This document shows positions 7,414 to 17,316 of a stretch of 24,197 nucleotides of DNA, piece after piece. Source of the stretch: a virus. The notes below the pieces were generated by a model, which was not told where the DNA came from, searched no databases, and saw only the letters and a list, made by a program, of their open reading frames with translations. Where the stretch lies: IMG/VR virus record IMGVR_UViG_3300035670_001213, positions 1 to 24,197 of that record; one strand, given 5' to 3'. A program made the position numbers and the translations under genes. Position 1 is the first letter of the stretch; each line of letters begins with the position of its first letter.

Positions 7414-7830
7414 TTAAGCAAAAAATACGTCATCTTCGGTGAGTGCTTTTACCGCAATCAATAAGTCTAGATCGTCTTTTGCAAATTCAACCATCTTGCT
7501 TAATGCACGCTTTTTTAACCCCCAATCTGAAACGATTCCTTCGTAGGCAATAAATCGCCAGCTATAAATTTCGTAGTCCAAGGCAATAGCGCTTTTCCCA
7601 AAAACACTTGCAACGTTGACGAGTTCACAATGAACTTCGTTGTTAGATTGTCCTTGTCCTTTGTGAATTTTGATACCCAGTTTCGGCATTTTGATTACCT
7701 CAATAGCTTTCTTGGAAACAAATCTGCACCCACCGACAAACCGAACCCAAAGCACGTTAGCCCATTCTTGGATTTCGATGATCGCGGAATCAAGGATATT
7801 TAGCTGTTGAGCGATTGCTGTAGTGTTCAT
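7414..7830 (-). CDS. Two-part small protein: shared 43-residue N-terminus plus unique C-terminal part
   Basis: As read, 138 residues. Residues 1-43 (from MNTTAIAQQLNILDSAIIEI to VSKKAI) are the same as in the gene at 8827-9246 except Arg36/Lys36; the rest is unrelated. An internal methionine at residue 48 (nt 7689) has its own ribosome binding site (GAGG, eight bases upstream), so a separate 91-residue protein starting MPKLGIKIHKGQG may be made instead or as well. The full frame starts at ATG 7830 behind GGAG and a strong promoter. The C-terminal part has no recognised domain. The case looks like a promoter and leader-coding module placed in front of an existing gene, which is inference. Confidence 0.6.
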   Translation of the reverse strand: MNTTAIAQQLNILDSAIIEIQEWANVLWVRFVGGCRFVSKKAIEVIKMPKLGIKIHKGQGQSNNEVHCELVNVASVFGKSAIALDYEIYSWRFIAYEGIVSDWGLKKRALSKMVEFAKDDLDLLIAVKALTEDDVFFA

Positions 7831-7892
7831 TGTGTCTCCGTGGTTGTGTTGACATCTTCAATATAACAAAACCTGCACAGAGATGTCAAGCA
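7725..7892. repeat. 168-bp direct repeat, copy 1 (promoter plus N-terminal coding module)
   Basis: Nearly identical to 9141-9308, offset 1416 bases. The repeat covers a minus-strand promoter, leader with ribosome binding site, and the first 35 or so codons of the gene at 7414-7830; weaker similarity continues inward to the end of the shared 43 residues. Outward, after a divergent gap, both copies have an eight-T run (A-tract on the minus strand) about 12 bases upstream of the -35 box. Confidence 0.9.
7860..7889 (-). promoter_or_regulatory. Strong sigma70-type promoter, copy 1
   Basis: On the minus strand TTGACA (7889-7884) is followed after 18 bases by TATATT (7865-7860); a TTATAT reading gives 17. 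An A-tract near 7906-7913 could act as an UP element. Inverted arms TGACATCT (7850-7857) and AGATGTCA (7881-7888) bracket the promoter core and overlap the -35 box, as a repressor operator would. It drives the genes at 7830 and probably 7373 with a leader of about 22 bases. Confidence 0.75.
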
Positions 7893-8089
7893 TTTGGCTC
7901 AGAATTTTTTTTCTTGTCCAGATGCCGTCTTAGTCGCTGATACCCTGTTAGGGGTTTATCGCCAATTAGGGGACGGCCCCCTTGGGGTGGTGACACGGGG
8001 TTAGGTGTCCACCAATGACCACAGTTGGGACAAGAGCGACGCTTGCCCCGTTTGTAGGTTTTGTCGCTTCCGCAACTAGGACACTGCAT
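7886..8089 (-). CDS. Small zinc-ribbon protein
   Basis: This 67-residue protein has CPSC (Cys3, Cys6) and CPNC (Cys20, Cys23) with basic residues between, a four-cysteine zinc ribbon of the kind found at the N-terminus of IS1-type transposase subunits and in many stand-alone phage proteins. The rest is Pro/Gly-rich, then basic (TGYQRLRRHLDKKK). It starts at ATG 8089 behind GGGAG and overlaps the upstream gene by 14 bases, so the two form an operon. Its stop codon lies on the -35 box of the next promoter. No transposase catalytic domain is near. A DNA- or RNA-binding role is plausible but inferred. Confidence 0.65.
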   Translation of the reverse strand: MQCPSCGSDKTYKRGKRRSCPNCGHWWTPNPVSPPQGGRPLIGDKPLTGYQRLRRHLDKKKNSEPNA

Positions 8090-8826: not shown

Positions 8827-9246
8827 CTAAATACCGGCCAGCTTTTTGATTGCATCTACCCAGTAGGGTTCGTTTTGTTTGCCGTTCGCGGAAAATGGGC
8901 GATCCGTGACTCCGTAAGTGCCACTGCCAGAGATGGCGCATTGGAATTGTTTTGTTTTTACGTCGTAGTAGAATTTGTTGGAGTTGATTTGACGGGCCTT
9001 GCTGTTGCTGAGTTTTAGGGCATCAGCAATCAGAGAAGGCTGAAAATAGATGCGATCATATTCGCCTTTTTTCCAGCGGTTTCCAATTTCTTCAAGCGCT
9101 TCTAGTTCTGTCATTTTGATCGCCTTTTTGGATACGAATTTGCACCCACCGACAAACCGAACCCAAAGCACGTTAGCCCATTCTTGGATTTCGATGATCG
9201 CGGAATCAAGGATATTTAGCTGTTGAGCGATTGCTGTAGTGTTCAT
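8827..9246 (-). CDS. Two-part small protein: shared 43-residue N-terminus plus DNA-binding-like C-terminal part
   Basis: As read, 139 residues. Residues 1-43 duplicate the N-terminus of the gene at 7414-7830. From methionine 45 (nt 9114, AAGG eight bases upstream) a 95-residue unit follows: MTELEALEEIGNRWKKGEYD, then LIADALKLSNSKARQINSNK, which could be a short helix-turn-helix, then a C-terminal YWVDAIKKLAGI. Start at ATG 9246 uses GGAG under promoter copy 2. Whether the two parts are one protein or the second starts internally is undecided. It could be a small phage regulator; that is only inferred from the possible helix-turn-helix. Confidence 0.6.
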   Translation of the reverse strand: MNTTAIAQQLNILDSAIIEIQEWANVLWVRFVGGCKFVSKKAIKMTELEALEEIGNRWKKGEYDRIYFQPSLIADALKLSNSKARQINSNKFYYDVKTKQFQCAISGSGTYGVTDRPFSANGKQNEPYWVDAIKKLAGI

Positions 9247-9308
9247 TGTGTCTCCGTGGTTGTGTTGACATCTTCAATATAACAAAACCTGCACAGAGAT
9301 GTCAAGCA
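9141..9308. repeat. 168-bp direct repeat, copy 2 (promoter plus N-terminal coding module)
   Basis: Partner of 7725-7892, offset 1416 bases. The sequence is almost unchanged across promoter, leader and coding start, while the flanking coding sequences are unrelated. This implies a recent duplication, gene conversion or independent acquisition of the module. Confidence 0.9.
9276..9305 (-). promoter_or_regulatory. Strong sigma70-type promoter, copy 2
   Basis: Same sequence as copy 1: TTGACA at 9305-9300, 18-base spacer, TATATT at 9281-9276. Inverted arms TGACATCT (9266-9273) and AGATGTCA (9297-9304) flank the core, and an eight-base A-tract lies upstream on the minus strand. Drives the genes at 9246 and 8798. 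Confidence 0.75.
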
Positions 9309-9326
9309 CCCCACGGAATTTTTTTT

Positions 9327-9845
9327 CTACCGACGAATCAACCGCCGATTGGCCAGTGTGACCTGCTCCCCTGGCACCACTTCGTCTAAACTGCAATACT
9401 GCCAGGCCATGACATTCACGATATCCTCAGCGGGTACCGTCTCGTCTGTCCATGTGCCAAACACCTGGGCCACCACATCACGGATCTGGCAATCGCCCTT
9501 TTTGCTGGCCCGGAATAGGAAGCCAGCGTTAACGCCGAGGCTAATCAATCGCTTGTCCTCGGTGCATTTGCCGAGATATAAAACAGCTAGGAAATCCTCA
9601 ACGCTGAGATTGTCGGGAACCTGGGCATGATCCATGGCAATCTGGAAACGCTTGCGACGGGAGGGACACGGGCGCTCTACCTTGACCCAGTGCAATTCGA
9701 CAAGCTCAACATCGTCATCGGTTTCCTTATTCCATTCGATGCTGTACCAGAGGTAACTATTGCTGATGGGCTGACCAAATCCTTTGGGGTCGAGGGATTT
9801 GGCCCTGGTTTTGGCTATTCTGCGTTTGAGTCCTGACAGGGGCAT
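9327..9845 (-). CDS. Protein of unknown function (172 residues)
   Basis: Basic N-terminus (GLKRRIAKTRAKSLDPKG), a mixed middle with SYLWYSIEWNKETDDDVELV, and a C-terminus ending TLANRRLIRR. The start ATG at 9845 overlaps the stop of the Nmad1-like gene by one base (TAATG), behind AAGGGGG, so the two are translationally coupled. It is the last gene of the three-gene antirepressor operon, and no terminator is visible after its stop. I recognise no domain; candidate pairs such as Cys118 are too few for a zinc site. Confidence 0.65.
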   Translation of the reverse strand: MPLSGLKRRIAKTRAKSLDPKGFGQPISNSYLWYSIEWNKETDDDVELVELHWVKVERPCPSRRKRFQIAMDHAQVPDNLSVEDFLAVLYLGKCTEDKRLISLGVNAGFLFRASKKGDCQIRDVVAQVFGTWTDETVPAEDIVNVMAWQYCSLDEVVPGEQVTLANRRLIRR

Positions 9846-13086: not shown

Positions 13087-15009
13087 ATGACGGAAACAAA
13101 AGGCATTTACGGACAGGGCGGTGGTGGTGGTTCAGTAGCCCAACCCAGAACCCCCCAAGAGGCTGACGATACGCTATCCTCCCGCTCTACTGCTAGGGTG
13201 CTGTACCTGCTATCTGAGGGCCAAATCCAAGGCAATGCCAGTGGGGCTAATATCCAACGGGACATTTTCCTAGACGAAACGCCATTGGAGAACCAAGACG
13301 GTTCCCTAAACTTTGAGAACGTGGCGGTTGACTTCAAGGACGGACAACCCAACCAGACCCCAGTGCAAGGGTTTCCTGCGGTAGAGACGGAGATCCCTGT
13401 TGGCGTTGATATTACATTCACTGGTGGGAGTATCACCCGGCAATTGTCCAATGAAGCCGCTACCAGCGTCAGGATCAGGATCGTTCTGCCCAATGGGCTG
13501 AGGTTGCAGAATAGTGAGACGGGCGACATTACTGGAACAAGGGTTGATTTTGCTATCGCCATCTCGACCCAGGGCGGGCCCTTTGTGGAATTTAACCTGG
13601 ACATTGAGGGCAAGGCCAGCACCGCCTATGAGCGTAATTATGTTTTTACCCTATCCACAACAGGGCCATGGCAGATCCGAGTCAGGCGGTTAATTGACGA
13701 TGCCACCAGTGCGGGACAGATTGACCTAATCCGCTGGCAGTCCTACACCGGCATTGTTGATAACCAATTACGCTACCCCTATAGCGCATTGCTGGGTATT
13801 CGCATTAATGCTGACCAATTTCAGTCAGTGCCAACTGTGGGGGCCAGACTGAGGGGGATACGGGTCAGAGTGCCCAACAACTACAACACGGGAGACCGCT
13901 CCTATAGTGGCTTTTGGAATGGTCAACTACAGGCCCCGGTGTGGACTAATAACCCGGTCTGGATCTACTATGACCTGCTAACTAACGAGCGCTATGGCTG
14001 TGGGCGGTTCCTAGATGCCTCTCAGATTGACCTGTTCTCGCTTTACGCCATTTCGCAATACTGTGATGAGTTGGTCAGTGATGGCAATGGAGGGACTGAG
14101 CCGCGCTTTACCTGCAACTGCTATATCCAAAACCGGGATGATGCTTATTCTGTTCTGAACGGGTTGGCTTCTGTATTTAGGGGCATTCTCTACTGGAGTG
14201 AGGGCCTAATTGTGGCCAGTCAGGATAGGCCTGCCGACCCGGTGAGACTCTACACCGAAGCCAACGTTATCCAGGAAGTGGACGACAACGGCAATATCAC
14301 CAAGGCCCCCTTCACCTACTCGGGTACGGCTAGAAGGGCCAGGCATACAGTGGCAATTGTGTCCTACTCTGACCCCGAGGATTTCTATAAGTCCAAGGTG
14401 GAGTACGTCGAGGACAGGGCTGGTATTGAGCGCTACGGCTACCGAGAGACAGAGATAACCGCCTTTGGTTGTGCCAGTCGAGGACAGGCCCAGAGGGTAG
14501 GCCGCTGGACTCTGATCACAGAGCAAGTGGAGACCGAGACGGTAACATTTTCGGTGGCCACAGAAGGCCTATTGGTCAGGCCTGGGGAGATCATCAAAAT
14601 TGCTGACCCCCTCAAGGCTGGGCAGAGGATTGGGGGGCGCATCATGTCGGTGACGGGTAACACGGCTACTCTAGACAGTGCTATCTCTGGGTCTGGGGTG
14701 CTATCGATCCTCAACTCCAACGGGGAGATCCAAGAGGTGAACGTTACCGCCAACGGCTCAACGGTGAGCGGTTTGCCCTTTAGTCCCCAGGTTGAATCGG
14801 TCTGGGCGTTTTCTGGTGGGGCTGGTACCCGGCTCTATCGAGTGGTGGGCATCTCCGAGAGTGAAGACGGTTCCTATAGCATCACAGGCGTTCTCCATGA
14901 GCCGACTAAATACGCCGCAGTGGATAACGGCACGGTGGTAGGGCAATCTAACTTTACCCAGACCGGCGGGGTGCAAGGCGTTACAGGGCTAAGTGTGGGT
15001 GTGTTTTAA
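13087..15009 (+). CDS. Tip attachment / central tail protein, gpJ-like
   Basis: This 640-residue protein is clearly in the J family. Near the N-terminus LSEGQIQG and FLDETPLENQDGSLNF are typical of J; YPYSALLGIRINADQFQSVP lies near residue 225, the NERYGCGRFLDASQID segment near 298, and CYIQNRDDAYSVLNGLASVF near 340. J forms the tail-tip hub and in lambda carries receptor-binding domains. At 640 residues it is much shorter than lambda J (about 1130), lacking the C-terminal fibronectin-like and receptor-binding regions. Part of that may be supplied by the separate fibronectin-like protein at 16963 and the fibre genes after it, now separated by accessory block 2. It begins right after the previous stop (TAAATG) without a strong ribosome binding site. 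Confidence 0.9.
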   Translation: MTETKGIYGQGGGGGSVAQPRTPQEADDTLSSRSTARVLYLLSEGQIQGNASGANIQRDIFLDETPLENQDGSLNFENVAVDFKDGQPNQTPVQGFPAVETEIPVGVDITFTGGSITRQLSNEAATSVRIRIVLPNGLRLQNSETGDITGTRVDFAIAISTQGGPFVEFNLDIEGKASTAYERNYVFTLSTTGPWQIRVRRLIDDATSAGQIDLIRWQSYTGIVDNQLRYPYSALLGIRINADQFQSVPTVGARLRGIRVRVPNNYNTGDRSYSGFWNGQLQAPVWTNNPVWIYYDLLTNERYGCGRFLDASQIDLFSLYAISQYCDELVSDGNGGTEPRFTCNCYIQNRDDAYSVLNGLASVFRGILYWSEGLIVASQDRPADPVRLYTEANVIQEVDDNGNITKAPFTYSGTARRARHTVAIVSYSDPEDFYKSKVEYVEDRAGIERYGYRETEITAFGCASRGQAQRVGRWTLITEQVETETVTFSVATEGLLVRPGEIIKIADPLKAGQRIGGRIMSVTGNTATLDSAISGSGVLSILNSNGEIQEVNVTANGSTVSGLPFSPQVESVWAFSGGAGTRLYRVVGISESEDGSYSITGVLHEPTKYAAVDNGTVVGQSNFTQTGGVQGVTGLSVGVF

Positions 15010-15047
15010 TGGTAGTGGAGGGTTCACCCAAACCATTTACACAAAAA

Positions 15048-15081
15048 GGAGACGGGTTGAGCAACAGGCCCTCCGTCTATT
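15048..15081. terminator. Possible terminator between gpJ and the HNH gene
   Basis: AGACGG (15050-15055) pairs with CCGTCT (15073-15078), followed by ATTTCTT on the plus strand and preceded by AAAAAGG, so it could work in both directions. The loop also allows a small GTTG/CAAC stem. The T tract is weak. It would stop J-operon transcription from entering the minus-strand genes. Confidence 0.4.
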
Positions 15082-15100
15082 TCTTGAATCCCCAATATAT

Positions 15101-15487
15101 TTATCTCCACAATAGGTTTTTGTAATTAACAGGAATAGAACCCTTTTTGATTTGGCTATCCCGCATTGATTTGTGTTTCATGTCTTCTCTCAATGCATGA
15201 CAAGCCGGGCACAATAGCCGTAGATTGCTGATGTGGTTGCTACCACCGCTAGAGAGGGGACGGATATGGTCAACGTGGCCCTGTTTTTCTGCTAACTCTC
15301 GCTTGCAAACCCCGGCTCTTTTGGGCGCGGCATCTTCTGGTGATTCGCACAGTCCCCCGGCTCGCTTATAGACGGCTTTTTGGGTTTTGCGCCATTGTTC
15401 TTTATCTTGCCGTTTCCAGGTATAGACCGGCAGATTGGGATACCGCCGCTTAGATTTGATTTCTTGGTATAACTCACTTGTATTCAT
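15101..15487 (-). CDS. HNH endonuclease
   Basis: This 128-residue protein has a complete HNH motif: His71-Val-Asp73-His74, Asn88 and His97, with four zinc-ligand cysteines at 47, 61, 93 and 96 (LLCPACH). Such small stand-alone HNH nucleases are common in phages as homing-type nucleases, nickases or packaging accessories; no terminase context exists here. The basic N-terminus (KSKRRYPNLPVYTWKRQD) may contact DNA. The frame continues upstream into the pentamer array, but the ATG at 15487 matches the start of family-like sequence. No ribosome binding site is obvious. The array begins 23 bases upstream, so any transcript from the gene at 16154-16774 into this gene must cross it. Confidence 0.85.
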   Translation of the reverse strand: MNTSELYQEIKSKRRYPNLPVYTWKRQDKEQWRKTQKAVYKRAGGLCESPEDAAPKRAGVCKRELAEKQGHVDHIRPLSSGGSNHISNLRLLCPACHALREDMKHKSMRDSQIKKGSIPVNYKNLLWR

Positions 15488-15510
15488 GGTTGATAGAGAT
15501 AAGGGGAAAC

Positions 15511-16141
15511 ATGACAGGACATAACAGAACCCGACGTAACATGACAGGACTTGACTAGACAGGACTCGACTCGACATGACTTGACATGACGCGTATAGCC
15601 AAATCAGAGGGTGAAAACATGACAGGACATAACAGAACCCGACGTAACACAACCGGACTTGACTGGACAGGACGTAACACGACCGGACTTGACAGGTACA
15701 GCCAAATCAGAGGGTGAAACATGACGAGACTTGACGAGACCAGACGCGACGGGACATGACACGACGGAACACGACGAGACTAGATCTAACAGAACCGGTA
15801 TAGCCACTAGGAAAGGGTGAAAACATGACAGGACTTGACTAGCGGCGACATGAGAAGCCATGACTAGACTCAACAGAACTCGACGCGACAGGACTCAACC
15901 GAACCAGACCAGTAAAGCCACTAGAGACGCGTGAAACATGACAGGACTCGACACGACACGACCCGACTCGACAGAACCGGACAAGACTTGACATGACGGG
16001 ACACGGCGCGACACGACTCGTACAGCCAAATCAGAAGAATGAAAACATGACATGACTTGACGCGATGTGACCAGACTGGACTCGGCGAGACGAAACACGA
16101 CATAGCGAGACCTGACGGAAGGAAGCTTAACTCGACAAGAC
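15511..16141. repeat. Array of about 98 NNRAC pentamers in six higher-order units
   Basis: It fills the gap between two minus-strand genes. Plus-strand pentamers have form NN-R-A-C: the first two bases vary freely and RAC, mostly GAC, is kept; about 88 of 98 conform by hand count. Units, each starting ATGAC, lie at 15511-15590 (16 pentamers), 15619-15693 (15), 15721-15795 (15), 15825-15909 (17), 15938-16017 (16) and 16047-16141 (19). Linkers of 26-29 bases between them run GTAYAGCCA..., then AG.., GTGAAA(A)C. The first six pentamers of units 1 and 2 are the same, after which only the dinucleotides diverge. On the minus strand, the sense of both neighbours, the repeat reads GTYNN. No protein-coding pattern is kept. 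Confidence 0.9.
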
Positions 16142-16153
16142 AAGTACAGCTAG

Positions 16154-16774
16154 TTAGTCAAAGACCTCGAATGCGGTTACAGCATAGCGGCCATAGCCGA
16201 TAGAGCCTCGACCGTCAGCAATGCCCACCAATTGTCCAGCGGCTTCGATAGCCTGCTTCATTTGGGTTCTGGCAACAATTGTCGGATCCCAAAGGATAGA
16301 AAAATTCATTTCCCACCCTGGCTTGACCGCGACCCGGTAACGAATATTACGGGCTTTGGTGGAGGGATTCTTTACTCCAATCCGCTCGACGTAGCACACG
16401 GGCAACTCGTCAAACGGCACAGAGTAAGCGTCGATGACATCGGGGGACTCAGATAGGACGACCGGCTCACCTTCGTAATGAATTTTAACCATATCATCTT
16501 TGATTTGGAGAGTGGCCGCCATGTCATAGAGGATAGAGCCACGCCCCTTTTTGACGTGCCGGCCGCCTTCCTTGAGGGAACCAAAGAAATAGGTCGGAGG
16601 CAGGTAGAGTTCCCGTTGTTTGGTTAACAATACCGTCCGTTTCCACTCTTCTGGGTCATTGCCTGCTACCCCTGTTTTTTCTTGCTTCTCCAGGGGAAGG
16701 GCATTAACGCCAAAATGGTGTATTGCGAGTGTTTTAATTCCTTTAATGGCGATGTTCGCCGCTACAATAGACAT
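16154..16774 (-). CDS. Conserved phage protein of unknown function (206 residues)
   Basis: Begins MSIVAANIAIKGIKTLAIHH and contains GVAGNDPEEWKRTVLL (about residues 35-50), ELYLPPTYFFGSLKEGGRHV with KKGRGS (about 55-80), a WEMNFSILWDPTI strand region, and a C-terminal GIADGRGSIGYGRYAVTAFE. I recognise this layout from a widespread family of unannotated phage proteins. The Gly-rich turns near 75 and at the C-terminus recall RAMP/Cas7-type RNA-binding folds, but that is a loose impression without a diagnostic motif. The ATG at 16774 has AGGAG ten bases upstream; the frame extends to 16825 through a conserved hairpin and was rejected. Its stop lies 12 bases before the array end, and the HNH gene follows the array. 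Confidence 0.7.
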   Translation of the reverse strand: MSIVAANIAIKGIKTLAIHHFGVNALPLEKQEKTGVAGNDPEEWKRTVLLTKQRELYLPPTYFFGSLKEGGRHVKKGRGSILYDMAATLQIKDDMVKIHYEGEPVVLSESPDVIDAYSVPFDELPVCYVERIGVKNPSTKARNIRYRVAVKPGWEMNFSILWDPTIVARTQMKQAIEAAGQLVGIADGRGSIGYGRYAVTAFEVFD

Positions 16775-16807
16775 TGTGCAACTGCTCCTAAACGTTAAAG
16801 TTGTACC

Positions 16808-16837
16808 GCCAGTGGGGACGGCCATCCCGCGACTGGC
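16808..16837. promoter_or_regulatory. Conserved hairpin, copy 1
   Basis: GCCAGT pairs with ACTGGC, inner GGGGA with TCCC, then GCG before the right arm. The central GGGGACGGCCATCCCGCG is almost the same as in copy 2 at 16894-16921, while the outer stem differs on both sides so that pairing is kept (CAGT/ACTG against CCT/AGG). It lies about 33 bases upstream of the minus-strand start at 16774, in that gene's leader region. Confidence 0.6.
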
Positions 16838-16893
16838 ATTGATGGCTATTAATATAGCATATATTTTGTGTGTTGGGGGTAAAAATCGGTACT

Positions 16894-16921
16894 GCCCTGG
16901 GGACGGTCATCCCGCGAGGGC
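16894..16921. promoter_or_regulatory. Conserved hairpin, copy 2
   Basis: GCCCT pairs with AGGGC, inner GGGGA with TCCC, GCG before the right arm. Outer stem sequence agrees with copy 3 (10967-10994), inner part with copy 1 (16808-16837), making it intermediate. GTACTGCC before it and GTACCGCC before copy 1 extend the direct similarity. TTTAGAATGGGTTCA follows, as after copy 3. Both copies lie between divergent genes; the stretch between them is AT-rich (16838-16880). Confidence 0.6.
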
Positions 16922-16930
16922 TTTCATTCT

Positions 16931-16955
16931 TTAGAATGGGTTCAGTGTAGCACAC
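16931..16955 (+). promoter_or_regulatory. Leader motif before the fibronectin-like gene
   Basis: TTAGAATGGGTTCAGTGTAG then CACAC, closely matching 11002-11027 before gpK. The start codon follows within eight bases and has no ribosome binding site. TAGAAT may be a -10 box. Both copies mark the return to plus-strand tail genes after a minus-strand accessory block. Confidence 0.4.
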
Positions 16956-16962
16956 GAAAAAC

Positions 16963-17316
16963 ATGGCTAACCTTCGCATCACATGGAACAGGCCCACCAT
17001 CGTCCCCTATGCTCCCCTCGCCAGTGTTTTTCCTGGGGTGGTGTGGCAGAATCCCCAGATTGACTTCAGGGCCAGATCCTTCCGGGTGCAGTATCGGAGG
17101 GTAGGGGATGCTAATTGGCTAGAGGCTGGCGAAACCCGAGACACCGGCATCGAGATCAGGGGAGTCCCAGACGGTGTTTATCAGGCTCGTATTGCTACAA
17201 TTGATGTGACTGGTAGAGCCAGTGCCTGGGTAGCTAGTGGCGAACAGGGAACGATTATTAATTGGGTGGCACGATTCAGTGAGCCGAACCACGCACTAGC
17301 ACTAGGAGTCTTTTAA
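16963..17316 (+). CDS. Fibronectin type III-like tail protein
   Basis: This 117-residue protein begins MANLRITWNRPTIVPYAPLA and has the core of a fibronectin type III domain: RSFRVQYRRVGDANWLEAGE, then GVPDGVYQARIATIDVTGRA. In many siphophages such domains are the C-terminal part of gpJ; here the domain is a separate gene after accessory block 2, consistent with a short J. It may sit on the J hub or serve as a fibre adaptor. It ends ALGVF; gpJ ends SVGVF. The next gene starts within its stop codon (TAATG). Confidence 0.7.
   Translation: MANLRITWNRPTIVPYAPLASVFPGVVWQNPQIDFRARSFRVQYRRVGDANWLEAGETRDTGIEIRGVPDGVYQARIATIDVTGRASAWVASGEQGTIINWVARFSEPNHALALGVF

What the first reader, a model, noticed from the sequence alone, without database searches (positions are those of the whole stretch)
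15511..16141. Degenerate pentamer array with a second order of repetition between a conserved phage protein and an HNH nuclease
About 98 pentamers NNRAC run almost without a break in phase, grouped as six units of 102-113 bases with a conserved linker. The RAC trinucleotide is kept in about nine of ten pentamers while the adjoining dinucleotide takes most of its possible values. A simple tandem repeat would show whole-unit copies with scattered errors; here change is confined to two positions in five, as if triplet and spacing are selected and the dinucleotide is free or is being diversified. Five bases is half a helical turn, so GAC faces alternate sides and recurs on one face every ten bases. 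On the minus strand, the sense of the flanking genes, the RNA would be GUYNN repeats with little self-pairing, suiting a protein-coated scaffold. I know of no described element of this form. Possible roles: multimeric protein-binding array, non-coding RNA, recognition region for the HNH protein, or a satellite kept by slippage.
Basis: partly seen in the sequence, partly recalled or inferred. Interest (0 to 1): 0.92.

Follow-up and report, generated by a model that had tools for sequence, protein, structure and literature searches.

The report
Phage gapped-guide RNA array (VIPR system)
The strange five-letter repeats are a bank of six guide RNAs of the recently described VIPR kind, read two letters at a time by a CRISPR-like protein encoded next door, and sister systems in Nostoc bacteria carry guides that match the capsid gene of cyanobacterial viruses.

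Summary
The array is real: six tracts on the minus strand at 15508-16141, 104 pentamers, 94 with GTY, with variable NN between. It is not a satellite. It is the vrRNA array of a VIPR system (Viral Interference Programmable Repeat; PMC13142463, preprint of April 2026). The neighbouring gene 16154-16774 encodes a Vipr protein: homologous to SUSP1 Vipr, with a Csm3/Cas7 (RAMP) predicted fold. The HNH gene 15101-15487 is its conserved partner. Published vrRNAs are GGY/NN "or a related consensus"; here the triplet is GUY. Eleven cyanobacterial Viprs with GUY form one clade nested among GGY relatives, so the scaffold base changed with the protein.

Guides from seven Nostocaceae sister loci match one gene, the major capsid gene of two 100-120 kb virus records. 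They do so only with a 1-nt skip, and the skipped base is always the codon wobble position. Two guide families hit two sites on opposite strands, so the published reading rule extends to GUY arrays. No convincing target was found for the window's own guides. The cassette vipr-array-HNH is all that the window shares with another prophage, so it moves as a unit.

Verdict: new member of a very recently described kind; GUY recoding and natural targets are the new information.

The parts
16154..16774 (-). vipr gene: RAMP-family protein that would polymerise on the vrRNA (ATG at 16774 after an AGGAG site; the longer ORF runs to 16825)
   Evidence: HMM of its family hits SUSP1 Vipr; profile without SUSP1 hits PDB 36pp 'SUSP1 Vipr protein' E 3.3e-8; AF2 model pLDDT 80.5, Foldseek top hits Csm3/Cas7; phrog_4652 of unknown function
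16044..16141 (-). vrRNA unit 1, 20 pentamers (15 GTY): TT TT GA AA TC CC AG TC AT GT TC TC GA CA TG AC GC AA AT AT
15935..16017 (-). vrRNA unit 2, 17 pentamers: GA GT GC GT CC AT AA TT CG CT GA GG GT GT GA CT AT
15822..15909 (-). vrRNA unit 3, 18 pentamers: TG TG CG GA CT GC GA CT GA TA AT TT AT GC TA AA CT AT
15718..15795 (-). vrRNA unit 4, 16 pentamers: CG CT AG TA TC GT CC GT AT CC GC TG TC AA TC AT
15616..15693 (-). vrRNA unit 5, 16 pentamers: CT AA CG GT AC CT CA AA CG GT AC GG CT AT CT AT (last six dinucleotides shared with unit 6)
15508..15590 (-). vrRNA unit 6, 17 pentamers: GC AT AA AT GA GA CT TA AA CT AT AC GG CT AT CT AT
15101..15487 (-). HNH nuclease gene, the likely vap (Vipr accessory protein)
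   Evidence: Pfam HNH 1.8e-11; an HNH homologue follows vipr on the same strand in most relatives of this clade, including all 11 cyanobacterial GUY loci
16814..16831 (-). Core of a hairpin upstream of vipr, CGCGGGATGGCCGTCCCC with paired flanks; second copy at 16899-16916
   Evidence: one copy lies upstream of vipr in prophage L175
15159..16832 (-). Mobile cassette hairpin-vipr-vrRNA array-HNH: the only part with detectable similarity to prophage record G010 (L175)
   Evidence: blastn and tblastn

Best explanation
The array is the guide bank of a VIPR system carried as a mobile cassette on a phage that probably infects filamentous cyanobacteria. The minus strand would be transcribed into about six guide RNAs of 16-20 pentamers, GUY-NN. 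Vipr subunits (16154-16774) would coat the RNA, one subunit per pentamer, gripping GUY and presenting NN. The NN pairs bind double-stranded DNA with one base skipped between successive pairs, so the target period is 3 and the skipped base is the codon wobble position. The HNH protein (15101-15487) would act on the bound DNA, or the complex would simply block transcription. Shown here: anatomy, homology, predicted fold, linkage of the three parts, and the 1-nt skip rule for sister GUY arrays. Inferred: transcription, processing, coating by this Vipr, HNH cleavage, and the identity of the window's own targets.
For: Vipr homology. RAMP fold. Array and Vipr linked, 32/51 versus 0/69. The 11 cyanobacterial GUY Viprs form one clade (100/99) inside GGY relatives, with GTY on the vipr strand. 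HNH partner. Targets: a Nostoc guide written with a 1-nt skip gave two exact hits in IMG/VR, both in the same major capsid gene (Pfam PF09950), extending to 12 dinucleotides, 24/24 bases. A second guide family hits the same gene on the other strand with 10 dinucleotides, 20/20. Both skip the wobble base. All seven Nostocaceae guides score 17-27 at skip 1; 525 shuffles reach at most 16, and skips 0, 2 and 3 at most 15. Over 161 pattern-defined units, NN composition resembles codon positions 1-2: G/A-rich first base, T-rich second, TA rarest. Mechanism precedent: PMC13142463.
Against: No target was found for the window's own guides: units 1, 2, 5 and 6 had no exact match in IMG/VR; unit 2 had one chance-level 3-mismatch hit in 218 genomes; unit 5 had none in 391. 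Unit 1's 8-dinucleotide run in a terminase gene is not significant (8 of 525 shuffles reach that score). Units 1 and 3 have several broken triplets and may be decaying. No RNA or biochemical data exist for this clade here. The published tail pseudoknot was not tested.
Confidence: 0.93

Rival explanations
1. A local satellite: pentamer repeats kept by replication slippage, with no function.
For: Units 5 and 6 share their last six dinucleotides, like a recent partial duplication, so recombination between units does happen.
Against: Degenerate arrays, but not plain ones, recur with the Vipr gene (32/51 versus 0/69). Dinucleotide strings are largely conserved between four Nostoc loci while the Y of GTY toggles (18/66 differences at Y versus 5-7/66 at N1 and N2). 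Targets are found at skip 1 only.
Confidence: 0.02
2. A protein-binding DNA array (operator or partition-like cluster of GAC/GTC sites bound by one of the flanking proteins).
For: Regular spacing; both neighbours are plausible nucleic-acid binders.
Against: DNA-site binding does not predict information in the NN positions, yet these specify phage gene sequence. The conserved triplet lies on one strand relative to vipr in the cyanobacterial clade. SUSP1 vrRNAs co-purify with Vipr as RNA (PMC13142463).
Confidence: 0.02
3. A VIPR system that is decayed or silent in this phage: once functional, now drifting.
For: Units 1 and 3 have 5 of 20 and 3 of 18 broken triplets; no target found for the four guides tested.
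Against: Vipr and HNH ORFs are intact, with the HNH motif and the G-loop. Units 2, 4, 5 and 6 keep GTY in 64 of 66 pentamers. Cyanophage sampling is thin.
Confidence: 0.1

Closest known systems
VIPR, Escherichia phage SUSP1 (type II) and P. fulva prophage systems, PMC13142463
   Same: Single Vipr RAMP protein, pentamer vrRNAs with two variable bases, several vrRNAs beside the vipr gene, phage-encoded, target read with a 1-nt skip at the wobble base (here shown for sister loci)
   Different: Triplet GUY instead of GGY; up to 20 pentamers against the stated 9-16; vrRNA array between vipr and an HNH gene instead of a DNA-binding Vap1; cyanobacterial setting
Nuclease-bearing VIPR types III-V (PMC13142463)
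   Same: Vipr plus predicted nuclease; host copies in defence islands aimed at viruses, as for the Nostocaceae loci here (type I R-M, caspase and NACHT neighbours in L144)
   Different: Exact type not assignable: the supplement with the consensus per type (fig. S17) could not be read, so GUY may already be listed there
Class 1 CRISPR backbone subunits Csm3/Cas7
   Same: RRM-type fold with glycine-rich loop; backbone that coats a guide RNA (Foldseek E 1.2e-7)
   Different: No CRISPR array, no cas genes; guide read in dinucleotides rather than 5-nt blocks between flipped bases
Short tandem repeats of cyanobacteria (STRR and similar; from memory)
   Same: Short phased repeats in cyanobacterial genomes
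   Different: Those are whole-unit copies; here two of five positions carry free information

Membership tests
VIPR | Vipr protein homologous to known Viprs | tested here: met
   Family HMM versus SUSP1 28474-29061: 88 bits over the full length; profile without SUSP1 versus PDB 36pp E 3.3e-8
VIPR | RAMP fold: RRM core and glycine-rich loop | tested here: met
   AF2 model pLDDT 80.5, pTM 0.78; 113 PDB matches with E <= 0.001, the 50 listed all from Csm complexes or Csm3; G-loop GIADGRGSIGYGR. Residues 20-44 and 189-191 are low confidence, so the thumb was not assessed
VIPR | vrRNA of pentamers with conserved triplet and variable NN | tested here: met
   94 of 104 pentamers GTY; all 16 dinucleotides used
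VIPR | Triplet GGY (or a related consensus) | tested here: inconclusive
   Triplet is GUY, not GGY; the paper allows a related consensus but the listing is in a supplement not open here
VIPR | 9-16 repeats per vrRNA | tested here: inconclusive
   16-20 pentamers here, the last (AT) probably part of the tail
VIPR | Invariable 3' tail with conserved structure | tested here: inconclusive
   A conserved ATGTTT...TTTGGCTRTAC linker exists in window and L175; no stable structure found in single units; no covariation test made
VIPR | 1-nt skip target rule | tested here: met
   Met for seven GUY guides of the sister Nostocaceae loci, at skip 1 only. Not shown for the window's own guides
VIPR | vap gene beside vipr | tested here: met
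   HNH gene conserved downstream of vipr across the clade
VIPR | vrRNA transcribed and bound to Vipr | not testable with these tools
   Needs RNA-seq and pull-down
CRISPR-Cas class 1 | CRISPR repeats and cas genes | tested here: not met
   No Rfam match, no identical spaced repeats, no cas-like match among the window proteins searched

The most novel reading that the evidence does not exclude
A GUY-coded branch of VIPR in which the middle scaffold base was recoded from G to U together with the Vipr protein (and, in other branches, to A or C), armed with an HNH nuclease, shuttled as a cassette between unrelated cyanobacterial phages and host defence islands, and in hosts aimed repeatedly at one gene, the major capsid gene of large cyanophages.
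Probability: 0.6. Interest if true: 0.75.

Novelty: new member of a known kind. Interest (0 to 1): 0.62.

Why it matters
VIPR was reported only in 2026 and its code tested on GGY guides. This locus and its sisters show by comparative genomics that the same gapped reading works with a different scaffold triplet, give natural targets in cyanophage capsid genes, and provide pairs of close Vipr proteins with GGY and GUY scaffolds from which the residues that read the scaffold can be found. The same cassette occurs on phages and in host defence neighbourhoods, which makes the proposed path from inter-phage weapon to host immunity directly testable in cyanobacteria.

Tried and rejected
Satellite or slippage (rejected). 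Protein-coding repeat: no frame stays open through the array. Known RNA family: no Rfam match. PADLOC has no model for the Vipr. tblastn of the window Vipr in 50,697 phage records: no match. Target scans for window units 1, 2, 5, 6 and in cyanobacterial genomes: nothing above chance; units 3 and 4 were not scanned. All-against-all target scan in about 1.3 Mb of fetched viral DNA: no signal at any skip, as expected for so little sequence. The Nostoc guide has no match in the genomes that carry it. Profile A2 against PDB gave E 1e-45 for SUSP1 Vipr but contained that protein, so it is not used; A1 does not contain it. One larger target scan timed out and was repeated on a smaller set.

Full report
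Observation. The region was read on both strands. On the minus strand, the strand of both flanking genes, it is six tracts of phased pentamers GTY-NN, 104 pentamers in all, 94 of them GTY, separated by conserved linkers. The phased pattern has 40 exact sevenfold matches on one strand and none for the reversed control.

What it belongs to. They fall in two kinds: plain pentamer repeats, and degenerate arrays with many different dinucleotides. A family built from the gene next to the window array occurs in 32 of 51 degenerate loci and in 0 of 69 plain ones. Array and gene are therefore one system.

Identity. A literature search found one description: VIPR, Viral Interference Programmable Repeat (PMC13142463). 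It has a single RAMP-type protein, Vipr, and guide RNAs of GGY/NN pentamers that pair with DNA through the NN only, skipping one target base between pairs. SUSP1, the experimental model of that paper, is held in the phage collection; its protein at 28474-29061 is flanked by GGY/NN arrays and is hit by our family HMM at 88 bits. A profile without SUSP1 finds the deposited structure 36pp, 'SUSP1 Vipr protein', as the only PDB match (E 3.3e-8). The predicted structure of the window protein (pLDDT 80.5) has Csm3-type subunits of CRISPR Csm complexes as its best PDB matches. The locus is a VIPR system.

Relatives and code. Scans with the protein alignment gave 32 genomic and 48 viral loci. In each locus the triplet of the neighbouring array was determined without assuming it. 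The nearest relatives outside cyanobacteria use GGY. The window, L129, L175 and seven Nostocaceae loci use GTY on the vipr strand; L176 has a GTT-rich array upstream of vipr that was assigned to GTY by eye. More distant groups use GGA, GCA, and apparently GAY. In a maximum-likelihood tree the eleven cyanobacterial GUY proteins form one clade (support 100/99) nested among GGY proteins. GUY also appears in distant branches, so the middle base of the scaffold has changed more than once. Residues that separate the cyanobacterial GUY proteins from GGY relatives are listed; all eleven carry one extra residue (Gly, Gln or Thr) in the G-loop that the GGY rows printed there lack. Which of these matter is not known.

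The HNH gene. An HNH protein lies downstream of vipr on the same strand in most loci of the clade. In the cyanobacterial loci the array mostly lies between the two. HNH is therefore the accessory gene of this branch, not a chance neighbour. The window and the prophage record of L175 share nothing detectable but this cassette, including an upstream hairpin, so it moves between unrelated phages.

Guides and targets. Guides differ entirely between the window, L129 and L175 although their Viprs are about 80% identical, whereas Nostocaceae species share guides. Within the four loci of guide family 1 the Y position differs most (18/66) and the dinucleotides little (5/66, 7/66); in the three loci of family 2 the numbers are 6/42 and 8/42, 6/42, so there the dinucleotides do not lag behind. 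The first shared guide, written with a 1-nt skip (20 fixed bases), gave two exact hits in IMG/VR. Both lie in the same 308-aa gene, a major capsid protein (PF09950, E 6.8e-28), in two records of 119 and 100 kb whose closest named relative by that protein is Aphanizomenon phage vB_AphaS-CL131. The match extends beyond the searched part to 12 dinucleotides, 24 of 24 bases, and the skipped bases are the wobble bases, some of which differ between the two phages. The second guide family was not used in that search; it matches the same gene on the other strand with 10 dinucleotides, 20 of 20 bases, in record G009, again skipping the wobble base. Across the two phage records all seven Nostocaceae guides score 17-27 at skip 1. 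Shuffled guides (525) reach at most 16, reversed guides 14, and skips of 0, 2 and 3 at most 15. In an earlier run over a larger target set with fewer shuffles one shuffled guide reached 19 at skip 1; it was not traced. The 1-nt skip rule therefore holds for GUY guides. The L144 locus stands beside type I restriction-modification, caspase and NACHT genes, which fits host defence.

What is not shown. No target was found for the window's guides (units 3 and 4 were not scanned). An 8-dinucleotide match of unit 1 to a terminase-like gene of G008 is at the level of shuffles. Transcription, RNA binding and HNH cleavage are inferred from the published system and from family membership. The host of the window phage is inferred from the clade only.

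Mechanism. Most likely the minus strand yields up to six guide RNAs. Vipr subunits coat each one, one per pentamer, holding GUY and exposing NN. The filament opens a DNA target of period three and blocks it or lets the HNH protein cut. A phage would use it against competitors; a Nostoc host would use the same device against cyanophages by way of their capsid gene, whose codon positions 1 and 2 are hard to change.

Novelty. The kind is known since April 2026. The GUY scaffold, its nested origin, the six-guide phage cassette, and the capsid targets are not in the main text of that paper. The supplement, which lists the related consensus sequences, could not be read. It is filed as a new member of a known kind.

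Noticed in passing
window 16814-16831 and 16899-16916 (-): Two hairpins upstream of vipr with identical core CGCGGGATGRCCGTCCCC and different but complementary outer stems (GCCAGT/ACTGGC, GCCCT/AGGGC); a third lies upstream of vipr in L175 (4943-4959). Looks like a structured regulatory or binding element of the cassette.
   Followed up: partly
window 7703-7914 and 9119-9328: A 212-base stretch repeated at 94% identity gives two minus-strand genes (7414-7830, 8827-9246) nearly the same first ~46 residues (MNTTAIAQQLNILDSAIIEIQEWANVLWVRFVGG) with unrelated C-termini, like a cassette of exchangeable moron genes.
   Followed up: no
window 13087-17316: The VIPR cassette sits in reverse orientation between the tail fibre J gene (phrog_31 positions 258-868) and an ORF that matches the next part of the same profile (892-957), so it lies at a split in a J-like gene or between two tail genes.
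   Followed up: no
L199, L202, L206, L204, L205, L019, L060: Vipr loci whose arrays use other triplets: GTT, GGA, GCA and apparently GAY. The scaffold triplet varies by Vipr clade while the first base stays G.
   Followed up: partly
L027: Array scored as AAY on the vipr strand (75 pentamers), a possible further scaffold variant or an array on the opposite strand.
   Followed up: no
L144 1-2564 and 7264-12099; L143 1071-2399: Chromosomal Nostocaceae VIPR loci lie near type I restriction-modification genes, PIN, NACHT-HEAT (EAD10) and caspase-domain genes, a defence-like neighbourhood.
   Followed up: partly
L216 near 10183: Window unit 1 matches 8 consecutive dinucleotides (skip 1, wobble skipped, antisense) in a terminase-like gene of the cyanophage record G008; within the range of shuffles, so only a lead.
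   Followed up: partly
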